From the IMG/VR virus record IMGVR_UViG_3300020477_001849, positions 1 through 64,000 of that record: a DNA stretch of 64,000 nucleotides; one strand, 5' to 3'. A program made the position numbers and the translations under genes. This DNA is from a virus. Each line of letters opens with the position of its first letter. Within the stretch, counting starts at the first letter, position 1. Under the pieces are notes generated by a model. That model saw nothing but the letters and a program-made list of their open reading frames with translations. It was not told the origin of the DNA and made no database searches. Shown piece by piece: positions 55,779 through 64,000 of the stretch.

Positions 55779-56136
55779 TGGTGGAGATGCCGGGAGTCGA
55801 ACCCGGGTCCAAAATAAGTCTATAATCAGGTCATTCACAAGTTTAGCTAATTTATTCCCGAACTAGCAAGGTATCTCGAAAAATCAACATTCCTATCGAG
55901 AATCGGAACCCACCTATTTCTAGGGACCATTCTTAATCTTTTTTATGTCGGTGAGATTAACCACTTATCCAGCTTTGATAACAAGGTTGCTGGAAACCCC
56001 GGATTAAGCAGCTAAGGCGTAATCATACTCAACATTATCGTTGGCATTTAAAGTTTATGACACTGTCAATCCATGTGTCACAGTTGGATACTTGCACCCT
56101 CGAACTTTCTTACCTTGTCGATACCAATTCACCCCC
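55779..56136 (-). ncRNA. ssrA: tmRNA (ssrA), complete, 358 nt
   Basis: Transfer-messenger RNA, which rescues stalled ribosomes and tags their products for proteolysis. The 5' end GGGGGUG (56136-56130) pairs with the 3' CAUCUCC to give a 7-bp acceptor stem with G-U pairs, and a genome-encoded CCA ends at 55779. The T-arm is GGACCCGGGUUCGACUCCCG. The D-like start GUAUCGACA and the resume codon GCC followed by a complete tag frame (56045-56004) are in the usual places. It starts 13 bases after the stop of the upstream methyltransferase-like gene, so it is probably cut from that transcript or has a promoter within that gene. tmRNA genes are rare in phages. Confidence 0.95.
56004..56045 (-). other. 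tmRNA tag-peptide reading frame
   Basis: Fourteen codons beginning with the resume codon GCC and ending in TAA encode ANDNVEYDYALAA. The C-terminal ALAA is the degron read by ClpXP/ClpAP in bacteria. The first AND and the final YALAA match the E. coli tag (ANDENYALAA), with the middle lengthened, so it is probably functional. Confidence 0.93.
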
Positions 56137-56875: not shown

Positions 56876-57058
56876 CTACTTTTTTTCTGTGCTTAGGGTG
56901 ATCTTAACTAGGTCTGCTGCTTCCTTCTTAAGTAGCCTCAGGCCTTTCCTTGCACGTACCCCGGCTGAAGCATTTCCTCCTGCATTTTTGTGTACGTCTA
57001 GATCTAAACTCTCAACTAAGACCTTAATCTCATTCCATTTTTCTAAAATACCTGACAT
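56876..57058 (-). CDS. Histone H1-like (Hc1-type) small basic protein, 60 aa
   Basis: A two-helix protein with MSGILEKWNEIKVLVESLDL first, then GNASAGVRARKGLRLLKKEA, and a Lys-rich end. This matches short bacterial Hc1/H1-like proteins, which have a conserved N-A-A-G-x-R-A-R-K turn and bind DNA. So it may help to fold or protect phage DNA. It lies in the right-hand cluster with no near overlap (13 bases to the next gene). Function by similarity only. Confidence 0.72.
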   Translation of the reverse strand: MSGILEKWNEIKVLVESLDLDVHKNAGGNASAGVRARKGLRLLKKEAADLVKITLSTEKK

Positions 57059-58068: not shown

Positions 58069-58533
58069 TTACTTCGTATGCCTATCCGCGATTGAGAATG
58101 AAGCCCATGAATCCGGCTTGACAAAACAGCTGTATCCCATGGATTTAACATAGTTGACTAAAGGGCTTAAAAATTTAGAGCTAGCAAATTTAGGATTTTG
58201 GTTTATATCAATATGAATTGATATTCTAGAAGCATCGATGTGCTTTTGAATTTCTTGTGCTACATCAATTGAATGTGTTACTTCTTTTTGTAACCTAGAA
58301 CCTAGGGCGGCGTTTAAGTATTTTTTTTCCCAAATTCTTCTATAGAAATACCTGCCGCCCTTTTTTGGCTGGACAACACAAATTGCTATAGCAAAGTTAA
58401 CTTTTTCTTTTTTGACCTGTGAGTCTGTACCGATATGAATTTGGCTTCCTGGATGATTCCTTACAACAGTTAACATTTCATTGAATGAAATCCTATCACC
58501 TGATCCGGTATTCCAGAAACTATTTTGGTTCAT
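58069..58533 (-). CDS. RNase H-fold protein of the YkuK/DUF458 family, 154 aa
   Basis: Predicted nuclease-like fold. It has IHIGTDSQVKKEKVNFAIAI with the first acidic residue of the RNase H fold, then GGRYFYRRIWEKKYL, then SIHIDINQNPKFASSKFL and the closing KPDSWASFSIADRH. These are hallmarks of the YkuK (DUF458) family, of unknown biological role. It starts four bases inside the end of the chaperonin-like gene, so the two are co-translated. Confidence 0.85.
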   Translation of the reverse strand: MNQNSFWNTGSGDRISFNEMLTVVRNHPGSQIHIGTDSQVKKEKVNFAIAICVVQPKKGGRYFYRRIWEKKYLNAALGSRLQKEVTHSIDVAQEIQKHIDASRISIHIDINQNPKFASSKFLSPLVNYVKSMGYSCFVKPDSWASFSIADRHTK

Positions 58534-59936
58534 TTATTTTCACACAAGATCATGGTAGAACAATTTCCGAGTGTTCGTGTAATAGAAATACAACTTTTCA
58601 AAGCTTCACACATCGCAATAAAGCTTAAACTATCAAACCCATATTTTTCAAGCTTTATTAATGATAAATATAACCACCTAACATCCAGTGGTATTTTTTT
58701 AATATCCACCAACCCGAACCTAGACAGGTCCCTAGTTAATTTAATACCGGTCTCTAATCTATCAAGGTCAATTCCCTTTTTTTCCATTAGCGAGTCCCTT
58801 AGCTTTATGTGTACGCATCTAGAGACTAGCCCATTTAATCTTCTAGACAGAAATTCCCGCTTTTCTATAGATTCGCATGCCTCTATGTCTTCCTTGATAT
58901 TCCTCACATGAAGACTAACTGACCGTGATGTATTATCATTCTCTATGACAACATGGCCATTATCTAATGTTACTTTAGGAATATCTAAGATATCTTCAAA
59001 CGTAATAGATGATATTAACTCGCCCTTAAGCGACGAAACCACGTCAGTCCCACAGATAACTGCAATATCCTTCAAGAGGTTTGCACCCTCTAGGTCATAA
59101 GGTACCGATACTGGAATAACCTCCAGCGTCTTTCTCATCCAATTGGTCGCAAGAGTAGCTAGTACTTCTTCACCATAACCTCTCGCAAAGATAATGCCTG
59201 CCTGTTTTTCTTCATGAAATTTCTCTAATAAAAGGTTAACCTCAGACACTTTCTCTATTATACCGTCAATTATAATTGGCTTTACATCGTGTAAGGTAAT
59301 TGATTTAAGCTTCGTCATTAACCGAAATTCTTGTGGGGGTGGCAAATAATATGAGTACCCACAGACTAGCTCTATAGAGCTTTCTTTAGAATTTTTCTTA
59401 TCGATAAAGATATTTCCGTTTGCACCAGCTAGCGATATCGCAGATTCTAGAATATGTGATATTTCATTATCCCTAAAGAGCATGTCGTAATAGTGACATA
59501 GGTCATCTTTATTGGCAGGTAAAATTGAAGCGTGTATTTTCTTTAATAACCCCTCAATCTCGCTTACTATGTTATTAATATCTTGGGGTCTTCTACATAG
59601 TTCTAAAAGACTACTGGATACTAAAAACAAAAATAGTATTCCTGCTGTGGCATGCTTTCTCTCACACCGCACAGCGGCATTTCGCAATATTTGTAGAATA
59701 AGATTTTCTTCTTGTTCACTAAAGGAGTGATTTGTAACGAGTCTCAAAGACTCAGATAAAGATAGGGGAATAAATCTAGATTCGTACGACTGATGTATGT
59801 TACCCTTAGAAATGTTTTCCAGCATTTCTGATAGGAATACAGCTATCTTTTTTTTAGCGCCCCTAGTCTTGTTACTAAAGACCGGTACGCTGAAGCTTGG
59901 TTCCATATCTTTAGTGCCTGACCGGTGGTTCACCAC
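58530..59936 (-). CDS. Highly divergent GroEL-like chaperonin without the canonical ATP-binding motif, 468 aa
   Basis: The apical half aligns well by eye with GroEL: GYSYYLPPPQEF, KPIIIDGIIEKVSEVNLLLE, GIIFARGYGEEVLATLATNW, then ANLLKDIAVICGTDVVSSLK. The lower half has the helix pattern KREFLSRRLNGLVSRCVHIK equal to GroEL EKLQERVAKLAGGVAVIKV, and EKKGIDLDRL in the place of the catalytic Asp398 (here Asp392). The nucleotide motif GDGTTTA is replaced by CERKHAT (91-97), the GGG loop is gone, and the GGM tail is absent. No GroES gene is near. It may be a pseudo-chaperonin that holds rather than folds, or joins host GroEL rings. Confidence 0.78.
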   Translation of the reverse strand: MVNHRSGTKDMEPSFSVPVFSNKTRGAKKKIAVFLSEMLENISKGNIHQSYESRFIPLSLSESLRLVTNHSFSEQEENLILQILRNAAVRCERKHATAGILFLFLVSSSLLELCRRPQDINNIVSEIEGLLKKIHASILPANKDDLCHYYDMLFRDNEISHILESAISLAGANGNIFIDKKNSKESSIELVCGYSYYLPPPQEFRLMTKLKSITLHDVKPIIIDGIIEKVSEVNLLLEKFHEEKQAGIIFARGYGEEVLATLATNWMRKTLEVIPVSVPYDLEGANLLKDIAVICGTDVVSSLKGELISSITFEDILDIPKVTLDNGHVVIENDNTSRSVSLHVRNIKEDIEACESIEKREFLSRRLNGLVSRCVHIKLRDSLMEKKGIDLDRLETGIKLTRDLSRFGLVDIKKIPLDVRWLYLSLIKLEKYGFDSLSFIAMCEALKSCISITRTLGNCSTMILCENK

Positions 59937-60162
59937 CGTGACCCGACGTTGCTAGGTTCAACAGCGTATCTCTTACTTTTAGCAATGCACTGTCGATTGC
60001 CTGACTTTCCTGTTGGGCTTTTTGATTTGCCAACCCCAACCTCCCCATCCCTAACACTAGTGATAAAGCAAATAGAATCCATGCAAACACAGAATGGTTA
60101 GTGGTATAGAGTAAAACTGATAACAGTAAACACAGTTCAGGATATTCAAAGGTAATTTTCAT
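59911..60162 (-). CDS. Small membrane protein with two helices, 83 aa
   Basis: Residues of about 9-45 have two hydrophobic spans (LCLLLSVLLYTTNHSVFAWI followed by LFALSLVLGMG), with a charged C-terminal tail. Likely inserts in the inner membrane. It overlaps the GroEL-like gene by 26 bases and follows PrkA by 43. No family was recognised; a holin is possible in principle but nothing else supports it. Confidence 0.75.
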   Translation of the reverse strand: MKITFEYPELCLLLSVLLYTTNHSVFAWILFALSLVLGMGRLGLANQKAQQESQAIDSALLKVRDTLLNLATSGHGGEPPVRH

Positions 60163-60205: not shown

Positions 60206-62134
60206 TTAGCTGTCTCTCCATAAGTTATTACTAGCGAATGTCAAAACCTCTTCAGCAGAATCTTCAGTGTATCCATACTCATGAATCATTACTGATATCA
60301 TGTCACCATATTTCTTTTGCTGTTCATCATCTCTTGTTTTTGACTTAGTAACAATCCTCGCCATATCCTTGACAGAAGATATGAGATACGATTCAATCGC
60401 TTCCTTTAGGGGTTCATAGCTAGAGTAGTTAACTTTCTCGCCCCTTCTCATCTTAGCAAACATGTATGCAGTAACATCACTTCGGAACCCATCCCTAGAT
60501 GATCCTACAATTCCTATTTGCTCTTCTATAGTCCTCATGAAAGTCTCGTCAGGCTCCATCTCTTCTTTGGTTATTCTATCTTTCAGTTTTTGCCTTGTAG
60601 TTGCAGCTTCGGCATTGTCTAGGTAGTTATCAAATAACGATTGAGCCTGCTCTTCATAAGCAGTGATAAATGCTTTTGCAATTTCTGTTTCTAATATTTT
60701 TAGGTACTCTTCTCTTACAACCTTCTGTATAAGCTCAAGACAGTTATTACGAAATTCTTCATCCACTATTTGCTCTTTGACCTGCCTAGTCAACGAGTCC
60801 ATTACCGATATCGGTGTAATCATAGACTTATCACTATCCGATAGTGCACTATCAAGTGCCTTCATTATAAACCTAGTAGAAATACCTGTCATTCCTTCTT
60901 TTCTAGATTCATCCCTCAGGTCTTTGATGTCTATCTTTTTAACCCTGCCTTTCTCTATAACATCATCGCCATTGTAAATTTTCATTTTAGTTAATAGGTC
61001 ACATTTGCTTGAGGGCTTAAGTCTGGACATAACACTAAACATTGATGCAATTTTTATAGTGTGAGGAGCGATGTGGTCGTTAAATTCAGATCTACCTAAT
61101 TGCTTTTCATAGATTTTTATTTCTTGATCTAATTCTAAAACATATGGCACGTTAATCTTAACAACACGATCAAGAATTGCTTCATTTGTATGCGACGACT
61201 GGAATCGATTCCACTCCGCTTCGTTACAATGTGCGACTATTACTCCATCGAAATAAATCATGTCATTCTTACCAGGAGAAGGTACTCTTTTTTCCTGAGT
61301 TGCAGTTATAACAGTGTGAAGAAATTCAATTTCATTCTTAAATATCTCGACAAATTCTACTATCCCTCTATTTCCAACGTTAAATGCACCATTAAGGGAA
61401 AGGACCCGCGGGTCATCTTCAGGGTATTTATCAAGCTTCGAGATATCCTCAGAGCCTACTAGCACCGATACATCTTGGCTATTTGCATCCATCGGAGGTA
61501 CGGATGCAACCCCACGCCTACCCCTCTGAGAAAAGGTAGACTGTGTTACTGGAAAGTTCTCGTATTCCCCACCAAGATCAGAAAAAAGCATATGCCTTGC
61601 TATAGGACTAATATCACCCTCTATTTTAACACCCAGCATTTTTTCAAATTTACCACGAAGGCTGCGAGGTAAAAGCTGTAAAGGTTCCCCACGCTGTGGG
61701 TCTCCGCTTAAGTGATAATACACATGTCCCTCTAGAACAGATTTTATATGCTCAGTAAGGGCTGATTTTCCAGCACCAACAGGTCCCATCAGCAATAGTA
61801 CCTGGCGACTTTCCTCCCCCTTAAGGGCAGCCGACTTTAAGAATCTCATAATTTTTGCAATTACTCTTTCCATTCCGAAAAAGTCTTCTTGGAAATATTC
61901 GTAAATTTTAATATTGCTGGAATCAAATAGTTTGTGGTGCCTAGGGTCAGATGTGTCCATTGCACTAACACCATGATCCTCTATAGCATCACACAATCTT
62001 TTATGAGATAGTTTCACTACACCTGGATTTTTTGATACTAAATCTAGGTAATCCAAAAAAGTCCCATCAAACTTTTCTTCTTTTTTAGAACTTCTTTGTT
62101 TTTCAATTAGCTTTCGAAAATTTGCCTTAGCCAT
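60206..62134 (-). CDS. prkA: PrkA-family AAA+ serine protein kinase-like protein, 642 aa
   Basis: Bacterial PrkA/YeaG proteins are stress- and sporulation-linked AAA+ proteins with proposed kinase or protease activity. Walker A GPVGAGKS lies at 117-124, after YFQEDFFGMERVIAKIMRFL. VPPMDANSQDVSVLVGSEDI, GIVEFVEIFKNEIEFLHTV and NEAEWNRFQ then follow in family order. A 642-residue length is that of full YeaG (about 644). It is downstream of SpoVR by 18 bases and of YeaH, so all three members of the bacterial trio are here. Confidence 0.92.
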   Translation of the reverse strand: MAKANFRKLIEKQRSSKKEEKFDGTFLDYLDLVSKNPGVVKLSHKRLCDAIEDHGVSAMDTSDPRHHKLFDSSNIKIYEYFQEDFFGMERVIAKIMRFLKSAALKGEESRQVLLLMGPVGAGKSALTEHIKSVLEGHVYYHLSGDPQRGEPLQLLPRSLRGKFEKMLGVKIEGDISPIARHMLFSDLGGEYENFPVTQSTFSQRGRRGVASVPPMDANSQDVSVLVGSEDISKLDKYPEDDPRVLSLNGAFNVGNRGIVEFVEIFKNEIEFLHTVITATQEKRVPSPGKNDMIYFDGVIVAHCNEAEWNRFQSSHTNEAILDRVVKINVPYVLELDQEIKIYEKQLGRSEFNDHIAPHTIKIASMFSVMSRLKPSSKCDLLTKMKIYNGDDVIEKGRVKKIDIKDLRDESRKEGMTGISTRFIMKALDSALSDSDKSMITPISVMDSLTRQVKEQIVDEEFRNNCLELIQKVVREEYLKILETEIAKAFITAYEEQAQSLFDNYLDNAEAATTRQKLKDRITKEEMEPDETFMRTIEEQIGIVGSSRDGFRSDVTAYMFAKMRRGEKVNYSSYEPLKEAIESYLISSVKDMARIVTKSKTRDDEQQKKYGDMISVMIHEYGYTEDSAEEVLTFASNNLWRDS

Positions 62135-62152
62135 TAAGCACCCCGAATATAA

Positions 62153-63460
62153 TTAGATTTCCCATGGTTCTTCTTCAATAATAGTTATTAATTTTGCAAG
62201 ATCACCCCACAATGTACTGACATGTAGTATAACCTCGTCTGCATATGTGAGCTCTAAATCTCTGCCATCGTGATCATGCCTCAAGCATAAAATATTGCCG
62301 TCCTCTATCTTATCTACATAAATCTTAGGTATGGAATTAATACCTACATTTTTTAACAACGACTCTTTTACTAGTTTCCATCCATCGTCATCTGATATTT
62401 CTGACACACTATACGTACCTTTCTGGTTTTTAAATGAAAACAGGTTTAACTCTTCACAATCATCCCTTGTTAGGTATTGCCTAAGAAATGCTTCGTCATG
62501 TGAAACTTCTCTAGCCACAAAACACTCCTCAAGGCCGTGACGTTCCTCTATTTTATTAAACAGATAAAATCCCAAATGATAAGGATTAATTCCTCCTATG
62601 TGAGGCCTAATAACTTGGTTGTGACTTTTTATAAATGGTAGGTGTAAATTTTGGGGCAGGTCAAGTTCATTCATCATCCTATAATGCCAAAAGCATGCCC
62701 AACCTTCATTCATAATTTTCGTTTGTATTTGTGGAATGAAATACCTAGCGTGATCTCTAACTATTTCCATTAGGTCAACCTGCCAATCTTCGAGATTTCT
62801 AGCATGTTCTAAAATGAACCCCAGCAAATCGCGGTCAGGTTCTAGTGGAATTTTCTCAAGATCAAAATCTTCATACATTCCGGATGCATCATTTTTTACT
62901 AACGATGTATATTTTTTCTTTAGTTCCTTATGGGATTCTCTTTCATACGGAAAGCTAGGCACCTGAAATTCTATTGCATGGGCAGAATCCAATATTTGTT
63001 CTACCGCTGCAATTCCTATGCTGGGATCTTCTATGTACCCCTGTATCCTTTTTTTTGCATTTCTAAACCTAGAAACAACAGTCTCAGCACGTGTATTTTG
63101 AAACATTCGATTATTTTTAAAAAAGTCTGAATGCCCTACGCAGTGACACATAATCAGTATTTGTAGATAGAGAGGGTTTTCTCTCATTAAGTACGATATC
63201 GAAGGGTCAGAGTTAATAATAAGCTCGTATGGAAGTCCCTCAGCTCCAGCATTGTACATCTGGTGTGTTCTTTCAAAGCTTTTCCCAAATGACCAGTGAG
63301 AATAATGGCTAGGCATACCATGATAGGCCATATTACCAATCATCTCGAAATAATCACATGTCTCATAAACAATAGGGTACCAGTCTAGGTCATGTGATTT
63401 TGCCAATTCACAAATTTTTTCATCCCATTCAGATAGGTCATCTAAATTCCAATCATTCAT
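62153..63460 (-). CDS. spoVR: SpoVR-family protein, 435 aa
   Basis: SpoVR proteins act in spore cortex formation in Bacillus and in stress responses elsewhere; their biochemical role is not known. The protein has KICELAKSHDLDWYPIVYET, NMAYHGMPSHYSHWSFGKSF and EGLPYELIINSDPSISYLMR at the N-terminus, and CHCVGHSDFFKNNRMF, all strongly conserved in the family. Bacterial forms are about 470-510 aa; this is slightly shorter at the C-terminus. It overlaps the YeaH gene by 8 bases and precedes PrkA by 18, so the trio is one operon. Confidence 0.92.
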   Translation of the reverse strand: MNDWNLDDLSEWDEKICELAKSHDLDWYPIVYETCDYFEMIGNMAYHGMPSHYSHWSFGKSFERTHQMYNAGAEGLPYELIINSDPSISYLMRENPLYLQILIMCHCVGHSDFFKNNRMFQNTRAETVVSRFRNAKKRIQGYIEDPSIGIAAVEQILDSAHAIEFQVPSFPYERESHKELKKKYTSLVKNDASGMYEDFDLEKIPLEPDRDLLGFILEHARNLEDWQVDLMEIVRDHARYFIPQIQTKIMNEGWACFWHYRMMNELDLPQNLHLPFIKSHNQVIRPHIGGINPYHLGFYLFNKIEERHGLEECFVAREVSHDEAFLRQYLTRDDCEELNLFSFKNQKGTYSVSEISDDDGWKLVKESLLKNVGINSIPKIYVDKIEDGNILCLRHDHDGRDLELTYADEVILHVSTLWGDLAKLITIIEEEPWEI

Positions 63461-64000
63461 CTAATTTCCCCCCAAAGATCTTTCTAAATGATGGCCAGAT
63501 GTCCTCTTTAGAGAATATCTTTACTATCTTAAAGTTCTTATCAACCAGGTTTGCAAATGCATTAGAAAGCCTAGAATCTCTATCTTCAAGCCATTGTACT
63601 CGATCACGCTCAGGTTCAATTTCGCAATAACAATAGAGCTGGCAGACATCCTTTAAGGCAACTGCTGCTTCATTGCAACTAGAAGTATCATCAGGCCAGT
63701 TATCACCATCTGAACACTGGAACGTATACACGTTCCATGACTCGGGATGATATCTTTCATTAACTACTTCAAGTGCCCTCTTAAGTGCACTTGAGACTAT
63801 AGTTCCACCCCCGCTTCCTCTAGTGAAAAATTGTTTCTCATTAACTTCATAAGCGGATGTATCATGAGAGATAAATACAATGTCGACATTTTCATAGCGG
63901 TGGCGAATAAACTGGTATATTAGAAAATAAAAGCTTCTTGCTATGAATTTCTTATCCTTGGTCATCGATCCGGAGATATCCATTATAAAAAAGATTACGG
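63453..64000 (-). CDS. yeaH: YeaH/DUF444-family VWA-domain protein, C-terminal part (cut by window edge)
   Basis: The frame remains open to the right edge, with VIFFIMDISGSMTKDKKF where the family usually reads FxxMDVSGSM, so the true start is outside the window. The apparent start Met at 63983 is the Met of that motif. DxSxS is the metal site of a von Willebrand A domain. FFTRGSGGGTIVSSALKRAL and NVYTFQCSDGDNWPDD are conserved in DUF444. In bacteria YeaH is coexpressed with YeaG/PrkA and is thought to work with it. At least 182 codons are visible of an expected 400 or more. Confidence 0.9.
   Translation of the reverse strand, partial: VIFFIMDISGSMTKDKKFIARSFYFLIYQFIRHRYENVDIVFISHDTSAYEVNEKQFFTRGSGGGTIVSSALKRALEVVNERYHPESWNVYTFQCSDGDNWPDDTSSCNEAAVALKDVCQLYCYCEIEPERDRVQWLEDRDSRLSNAFANLVDKNFKIVKIFSKEDIWPSFRKIFGGKLDE

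What the first reader, a model, noticed from the sequence alone, without database searches (positions are those of the whole stretch)
60206..64000. A phage operon encoding the bacterial PrkA-SpoVR-YeaH stress trio
All three families, known as a conserved functional group in bacteria (sporulation in Bacillus; starvation and stress in Enterobacteria), are encoded together in order yeaH, spoVR, prkA on one strand with 8- and 18-base junctions. PrkA has its full length and Walker A, SpoVR its conserved core, and YeaH the VWA metal motif. A phage keeping the whole trio suggests it changes the host's stress or dormancy state. I do not know of it as a standard phage module.
Basis: partly seen in the sequence, partly recalled or inferred. 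Interest (0 to 1): 0.88.

Follow-up and report, generated by a model that had tools for sequence, protein, structure and literature searches.

The report
Phage operon of bacterial stress-response trio
A large family of uncultivated giant phages carries an intact, strongly conserved copy of a three-gene bacterial stress machine (PrkA, YeaH, SpoVR) in a rearranged, phage-only gene order, which suggests these viruses run a piece of the host's starvation or stress programme during infection; what the machine acts on is not known.

Summary
The window lies in a 75,650-bp virus record, and past 64,000 it is still phage. YeaH/YhbH (complete, 391 aa), SpoVR (435 aa) and PrkA (642 aa) lie in that order on the minus strand, with an 8-base overlap and an 18-base gap.

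The trio is not a one-off. IMG/VR holds hundreds of contigs with PrkA or SpoVR relatives. In the window's clade all 104 loci with enough flank, and 80 of 80 picked by SpoVR, read YeaH-SpoVR-PrkA; bacteria in many phyla read PrkA-YeaH-SpoVR. All three trees give one phage clade (99-100). Active-site residues are invariant and dN/dS is about 0.01-0.08. A degenerate chaperonin usually follows PrkA.

Phages captured the trio at least five times: this clade, Thermus phages, two kinds of ~600-kb phage, and one Spirochaete-like contig. Ralstonia jumbo phage RsoM2USA is a published carrier. So "no standard phage module" is half right: scattered members are in the databases, but I found no paper that treats the trio as a module.

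Most likely it is an AAA+/VWA remodelling machine with SpoVR as effector or client. A stress- or envelope-related host target is favoured; virion assembly is the main rival.

The parts
63453..64000 (-). YeaH/YhbH (DUF444, VWA domain), C-terminal part; the gene runs on to record position 64628 (391 aa in all)
   Evidence: PF04285 E=1.7e-113, TIGR02877 415.7 bits against a cut-off of 468; MIDAS residues invariant in the phage clade
62153..63460 (-). SpoVR, 435 aa
   Evidence: PF04293 E=7.7e-122; H55, H106, H110, E252, G253, H259 invariant in the clade; AF2 model pLDDT 90.1 without a PDB fold match
60206..62134 (-). PrkA (YeaG) AAA+ protein, 642 aa
   Evidence: PF08298 E=1.1e-134 and PF06798 E=1.2e-80; PDB relative 9xip E=1.6e-92; Walker A, N296, R315 and R413 (numbering of the HMM-matched stretch) invariant in 110 clade members
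59911..60162 (-). 83-aa small protein with a hydrophobic N-terminal half, 43 bases after PrkA; recognisable in a few relatives only
   Evidence: TM83 hits in L014, L035, L144, L149
58530..59936 (-). Degenerate GroEL-like protein, 468 aa, next large gene after PrkA in most relatives
   Evidence: NCBIfam GroEL hits E~1e-19; AF2 model matches group I chaperonins, TMq up to 0.76; GDGTTT ATPase motif lost
58069..58533 (-). RNase H-like protein (PF04308), often the gene after the GroEL-like one
   Evidence: PF04308 E=8.9e-31; position kept in many relatives

Best explanation
This is a phage-adapted copy of the bacterial PrkA-YeaH-SpoVR module. Shown: all three genes are intact, kept together, invariant at the key residues and selected as proteins. 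Inferred: PrkA forms an AAA+ ATPase ring, YeaH is its VWA (MIDAS) adaptor as in NorQ-NorD or RavA-ViaA, and together they remodel or activate SpoVR, a protein with an invariant histidine/glutamate core that may bind metal, or act with it on a shared target. Inferred with less certainty: as in starved E. coli, where yeaG and yeaH hold down metabolic activity, or in sporulating Bacillus, the phage uses it to hold its host in a restrained but viable, stress-hardened state (metabolism and/or envelope) through a long infection.
For: The window clade has one order, YeaH-SpoVR-PrkA, in 104 of 104 informative loci, 80 of 80 SpoVR-selected loci and 2 of 2 TerL-selected carriers. It is one clade in the PrkA, SpoVR and YeaH trees (SH-aLRT 100, 100, 99). 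dN/dS is about 0.01-0.08 for the trio. Catalytic and MIDAS residues are 100% kept, including the Lys116 and Lys426 equivalents that E. coli YeaG needs (PMC4664914). At least five captures by unrelated large phages argue for a selected benefit. [quoted passage not shown] a stress operon in Rhizobium etli (PMC3188799); sporulation and osmotic stress in B. anthracis, with negligible kinase or protease activity in vitro (PMC13001217). AAA+/VWA mechanism by analogy: NorQD (PMC13036017), RavA-ViaA (PMC10585395).
Against: No expression or infection data. The molecular target of the trio is unknown even in bacteria. The bacterial link to dormancy rests on mutants in other species. In Thermus phages the trio sits by portal, minor head and terminase genes, which fits morphogenesis better. 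The trio is not universal among phages with a related terminase: 2 of 6 records of 100 kb or more, although such records may be fragments.
Confidence: 0.5

Rival explanations
1. The trio is a chaperone set for the phage's own proteins (virion assembly or late-protein folding), like the MoxR-vWA pairs proposed for group 2.2 jumbo phages and reported for an archaeal virus tail.
For: In Thermus phage Lalka8 the trio lies between the minor head protein and TerL, and in phiYS40 close to TerL. In the window clade a GroEL-like gene follows PrkA, the record also has HSP20 and tmRNA, and larger relatives carry a canonical GroEL. Iyer et al. propose virion assembly for MoxR-vWA in jumbo phages (PMC7824862).
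Against: In the window clade the close neighbours are DNA and nucleotide genes, and in the records worked out TerL is some 70-110 kb away. SpoVR has no known counterpart in assembly systems. The bacterial trio works without any virion.
Confidence: 0.3
2. The trio acts on the cell envelope (peptidoglycan or outer layer), to delay lysis or block competing phages, rather than on metabolism.
For: SpoVR of B. subtilis is needed for spore cortex formation (Beall and Moran 1994, cited in PMC4605624); yeaGH matters for the polymyxin B response in Salmonella (cited in PMC4664914). The window phage also has a long sugar and glycosyltransferase cluster at about 22-54 kb.
Against: No envelope enzyme is linked to the trio by position. 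The SpoVR model has no PDB fold match to suggest an enzymatic role.
Confidence: 0.15
3. Passive cargo: host genes picked up by chance and on their way to decay.
For: Phages do pick up host genes; the trio is missing from some related records.
Against: dN/dS 0.01-0.08, invariant active sites, one fixed order across about 32 clusters at 80% identity.
Confidence: 0.02
4. Artefact: bacterial chromosome or prophage flank binned as virus, as in record LAU1.
For: Enterobacter phage LAU1 begins with host yeaG-yeaH, so such artefacts exist.
Against: Contigs of 167-361 kb with one TerL each carry the trio; the gene order differs from all bacteria sampled; neighbours are phage-like.
Confidence: 0.01

Closest known systems
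Bacterial prkA-yeaH-spoVR operon (e.g. Clostridia; prkA operon of Rhizobium etli, PMC3188799)
   Same: Same three families, full length, same key residues; nearest bacterial PrkA are Clostridia, Bacteroidota and Deltaproteobacteria types, 53-58% identical over the full length
   Different: Order is YeaH-SpoVR-PrkA instead of PrkA-YeaH-SpoVR; phage genes form their own clade; a degenerate chaperonin follows PrkA
Thermus phages phiYS40, TMA, phiLo, MN1, Lalka8/27 (deposited trios)
   Same: Carry YeaH-like, SpoVR and PrkA in the same YeaH-SpoVR-PrkA order where read
   Different: About 30% identical, far apart in the trees; one clade with the window's is rejected (AU p=2e-8 for PrkA, 0.005 for YeaH); in phiYS40 and Lalka8 located by head and terminase genes
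~600-kb metagenomic phages LR745206, LR756502, LR756504, LR756511
   Same: All three genes on each record
   Different: Bacterial order PrkA-YeaH-SpoVR where linked; the two of the first three that are in the tree (LR745206, LR756504) group with Proteobacteria, LR756511 with another bacterial type
Ralstonia jumbo phage RsoM2USA
   Same: SpoVR (ORF28) and PrkA (ORF30) two genes apart, per PMC8504454
   Different: Reported best hits are Gammaproteobacterial; no module interpretation given; order on the strand is PrkA-ORF29-SpoVR
MoxR AAA+/VWA pairs (NorQ-NorD, RavA-ViaA; jumbo-phage MoxR-vWA of Iyer et al.)
   Same: AAA+ ATPase encoded with a VWA MIDAS protein
   Different: PrkA is its own AAA+ family with an extra C-terminal domain; SpoVR is a third conserved member; physical interaction untested here

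Membership tests
PrkA (YeaG) family | AAA_PrkA domain (PF08298) followed by PrkA C-terminal domain (PF06798) | tested here: met
   E=1.1e-134 and 1.2e-80, nearly the whole protein covered
PrkA (YeaG) family | Intact Walker A and residues essential in E. coli YeaG (K116, K426) | tested here: met
   GPVGAGKS; both lysines kept; R232 is Ser, as in a Clostridium and Flammeovirga too
PrkA (YeaG) family | NCBIfam equivalog score (NF011999, 576 bits) | tested here: not met
   395 bits: family member, but not an equivalog of the enterobacterial type
SpoVR family | PF04293 over the whole protein with the conserved His/Glu core | tested here: met
   E=7.7e-122, residues 3-375; core invariant. Equivalog NF008737 not reached, 274 of 679 bits
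YeaH/YhbH (DUF444) | PF04285 and MIDAS DxSxS..T..D | tested here: met
   E=1.7e-113; MIDAS 100%. Equivalog TIGR02877 not reached, 415.7 of 468 bits
Bacterial prkA-yeaH-spoVR operon | Gene order PrkA-YeaH-SpoVR | tested here: not met
   Order is YeaH-SpoVR-PrkA in the whole window clade
MoxR-VWA chaperone pair | AAA+ of the MoxR clade that binds its VWA partner | not testable with these tools
   The PrkA profile hits RavA (MoxR) and Lon only weakly in the PDB; binding needs an experiment
GroEL (neighbour gene) | Group I chaperonin fold | tested here: met
   Foldseek E about 1e-27; TMq up to 0.76 with a GroES-bound form
GroEL (neighbour gene) | GDGTTT ATPase motif | tested here: not met
   Lost in all 12 sequences compared; kept in the separate GroEL of five relatives

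The most novel reading that the evidence does not exclude
A common lineage of uncultivated jumbo phages carries its own re-ordered PrkA-YeaH-SpoVR machine, coupled to a catalytically dead, fast-evolving chaperonin that tunes it to the host, and so imposes a stationary-phase-like, viable-but-restrained state on infected cells: a virus-run dormancy programme.
Probability: 0.25. Interest if true: 0.85.

Novelty: new variant of a known kind. Interest (0 to 1): 0.62.

Why it matters
The biochemical job of PrkA-YeaH-SpoVR is still unknown, although the operon is spread widely over bacteria. Repeated capture by phages, with all three kept together under strong selection, indicates that the trio works as one unit and that it helps a virus. 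Cultivated Thermus phages with the trio make the question testable. If it changes host state, it adds a regulatory machine to the list of ways in which giant phages steer their hosts, in a lineage found in hundreds of viral contigs.

Tried and rejected
Rejected: bacterial contamination; passive cargo; a single phage origin of the YeaH-SpoVR-PrkA order (AU test, with long Thermus branches as a caveat). Enterobacter phage LAU1 was set aside as host flank at the record end. MAG contig L062 looked like a bacterial carrier with phage order but is a phage contig (TerL and PrkA on contig C5). A SpoVR fold search in the PDB gave nothing. Promoter and terminator scans gave no more than chance. Literature: the marine jumbo-phage survey PMC9123017 does not mention the families; the phiYS40 genome paper is not held. 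Host prediction was not attempted beyond tRNA, tmRNA and RNA-family scans, which gave no host. TerL-selected records show that the trio is not universal.

Full report
What is there. The window is part of a 75,650-bp virus record. On its minus strand lie YeaH/YhbH (complete at record 63453-64628, 391 aa), SpoVR (62153-63460, 435 aa) and PrkA (60206-62134, 642 aa), with an 8-base overlap and an 18-base gap. Pfam matches are full length and unambiguous (E 1e-113 to 1e-134 for the main domains). All three stay below NCBIfam's equivalog cut-offs, so they are diverged members of their families. The sequence past 64,000 is phage-like: a HAD-NUDIX protein, a DinG-type helicase (phrog_2488), a dCMP deaminase, HSP20. 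Elsewhere in the window are a baseplate protein, PhoH, a tmRNA and a large glycan cluster.

How common it is. A scan of IMG/VR with the window's PrkA gave 50 loci, nearly all 63-84% identical. Contigs of the clade reach 167-361 kb, each with one terminase match. In the window clade every locus with enough flank reads YeaH-SpoVR-PrkA: 104 of 104, 80 of 80 SpoVR-selected loci (which overlap the first set) and both TerL-selected carriers. The trio is not universal: 2 of 6 TerL-selected records of at least 100 kb have PrkA, but such records may be fragments. I infer a mainly aquatic habitat from memory of IMG sample numbers and from the Tara name of one MAG; habitat was not tested.

Gene order. 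In bacteria the order is PrkA-YeaH-SpoVR: 70 loci plus 3 with broken frames, and 19 of 20 further loci from several phyla, the twentieth showing PrkA only, near a contig end. The single 'bacterial' exception, L062, is a 306-kb phage contig inside a MAG, since terminase and PrkA lie on the same contig. The order is thus a phage hallmark in this sample. Thermus phages share it, while the ~600-kb phages have the bacterial order where the genes are linked.

Origin. In trees of 61 rows the window clade (33 representatives) is one clade for PrkA (SH-aLRT 100), SpoVR (100) and YeaH (99). Its PrkA sits by Clostridia, Bacteroidota, Deltaproteobacteria and one Sneathiellales MAG. Other phage trios fall elsewhere: LR745206 and LR756504 with Proteobacteria, LR756511 with a second bacterial type, contig L059 with Spirochaete-like sequences, Thermus phages on their own long branch. 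Holding the window clade and the Thermus phages together is rejected (p=2e-8 for PrkA, 0.005 for YeaH), with long branches as a caveat. So large phages took up the trio at least five times; the RsoM2USA genes may be a sixth (PMC8504454).

Selection and function of the parts. In 110 window-clade PrkA the Walker A motif, the conserved Asn and the Arg positions are invariant; so are the MIDAS residues of YeaH and the His/Glu core of SpoVR. The lysines that E. coli YeaG needs (K116, K426; PMC4664914) are kept. Pairwise dN/dS is about 0.01-0.08 for the trio, though dS is near saturation in many pairs. PrkA has a solved relative, 9xip (E=1.6e-92). SpoVR gave a confident model (pLDDT 90.1) without a PDB match, so its fold is an orphan; a metal-binding role is inferred only from the invariant H-x3-H, E and H.

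The companion chaperonin. In most relatives the next large gene after PrkA is a 390-480 aa GroEL-like protein. Its model has the group I chaperonin fold (TMq up to 0.76), but the GDGTTT ATPase motif is lost in all 12 sequences compared. Five of six large relatives examined carry a separate GroEL, and these keep GDGTTT. The GroEL-like gene evolves much faster than the trio (dN/dS 0.07-0.53; 41-60% identity in most pairs where PrkA is over 90% identical). A catalytically dead chaperonin that adapts to host proteins or tunes PrkA is an attractive guess, no more.

Mechanism. PrkA plus YeaH looks like an AAA+/VWA pair of the NorQ-NorD or RavA-ViaA kind (PMC13036017, PMC10585395); physical contact is not shown here. 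In B. anthracis PrkA is needed for sporulation and osmotic tolerance and shows negligible kinase or protease activity in vitro (PMC13001217). In E. [quoted passage not shown] I therefore favour a host-state role (0.5), with virion assembly (0.3; Iyer et al., PMC7824862; trio next to head and terminase genes in Thermus phages) and an envelope role (0.15) as rivals.

Novelty. Scattered phage copies are deposited, and SpoVR was noted as the most abundant viral 'sporulation' gene in an oxygen-minimum-zone virome (PMC8940887). I found no paper that describes the trio as a phage module, its phage-specific order or its chaperonin companion, within an open-licence library only. I file it as a new variant of a known kind.

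Noticed in passing
window 55779-56136 (-): Phage-encoded tmRNA, Rfam RF00023 at 99.7 bits, tag ANDNVEYDYALAA.
   Followed up: partly
window 58530-59936; L388-L392: Jumbo phages of this clade can have two chaperonins: a GroEL with intact GDGTTT and a fast-evolving GroEL-like one without it next to PrkA.
   Followed up: partly
L062 (NHDW01000006.1, 305,838 bp): Phage contig binned in the GTDB MAG 'Methylococcaceae bacterium TMED69': TerL and the phage-order trio on one contig.
   Followed up: yes
window about 22000-54000 (-): About 30 genes in one direction, many for sugar nucleotides, aminotransferases and glycosyltransferases: a large phage glycan cluster.
   Followed up: no
window 56876-57058 (-): 60-aa protein with a match to histone H1-like Hc1 (PF07432, E=4.4e-8).
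   Followed up: no
L390:3377-4192; L389:3574-4503: Relatives encode a sigma-70-type factor and a UvdE endonuclease close to GroEL.
   Followed up: no
L003 (MN688132.1, Enterobacter phage LAU1): The deposited 'complete phage genome' begins with host yeaG-yeaH, probably a prophage flank.
   Followed up: partly
L049, L050, L027, L432: YeaH is split into two overlapping or adjacent frames: sequencing error, decay or frameshift not decided.
   Followed up: no
L002:8125-8967 (+): Sizeable plus-strand gene among minus-strand ones: trypsin-like/HtrA-like protease with an apparent lipoprotein-type start.
   Followed up: no
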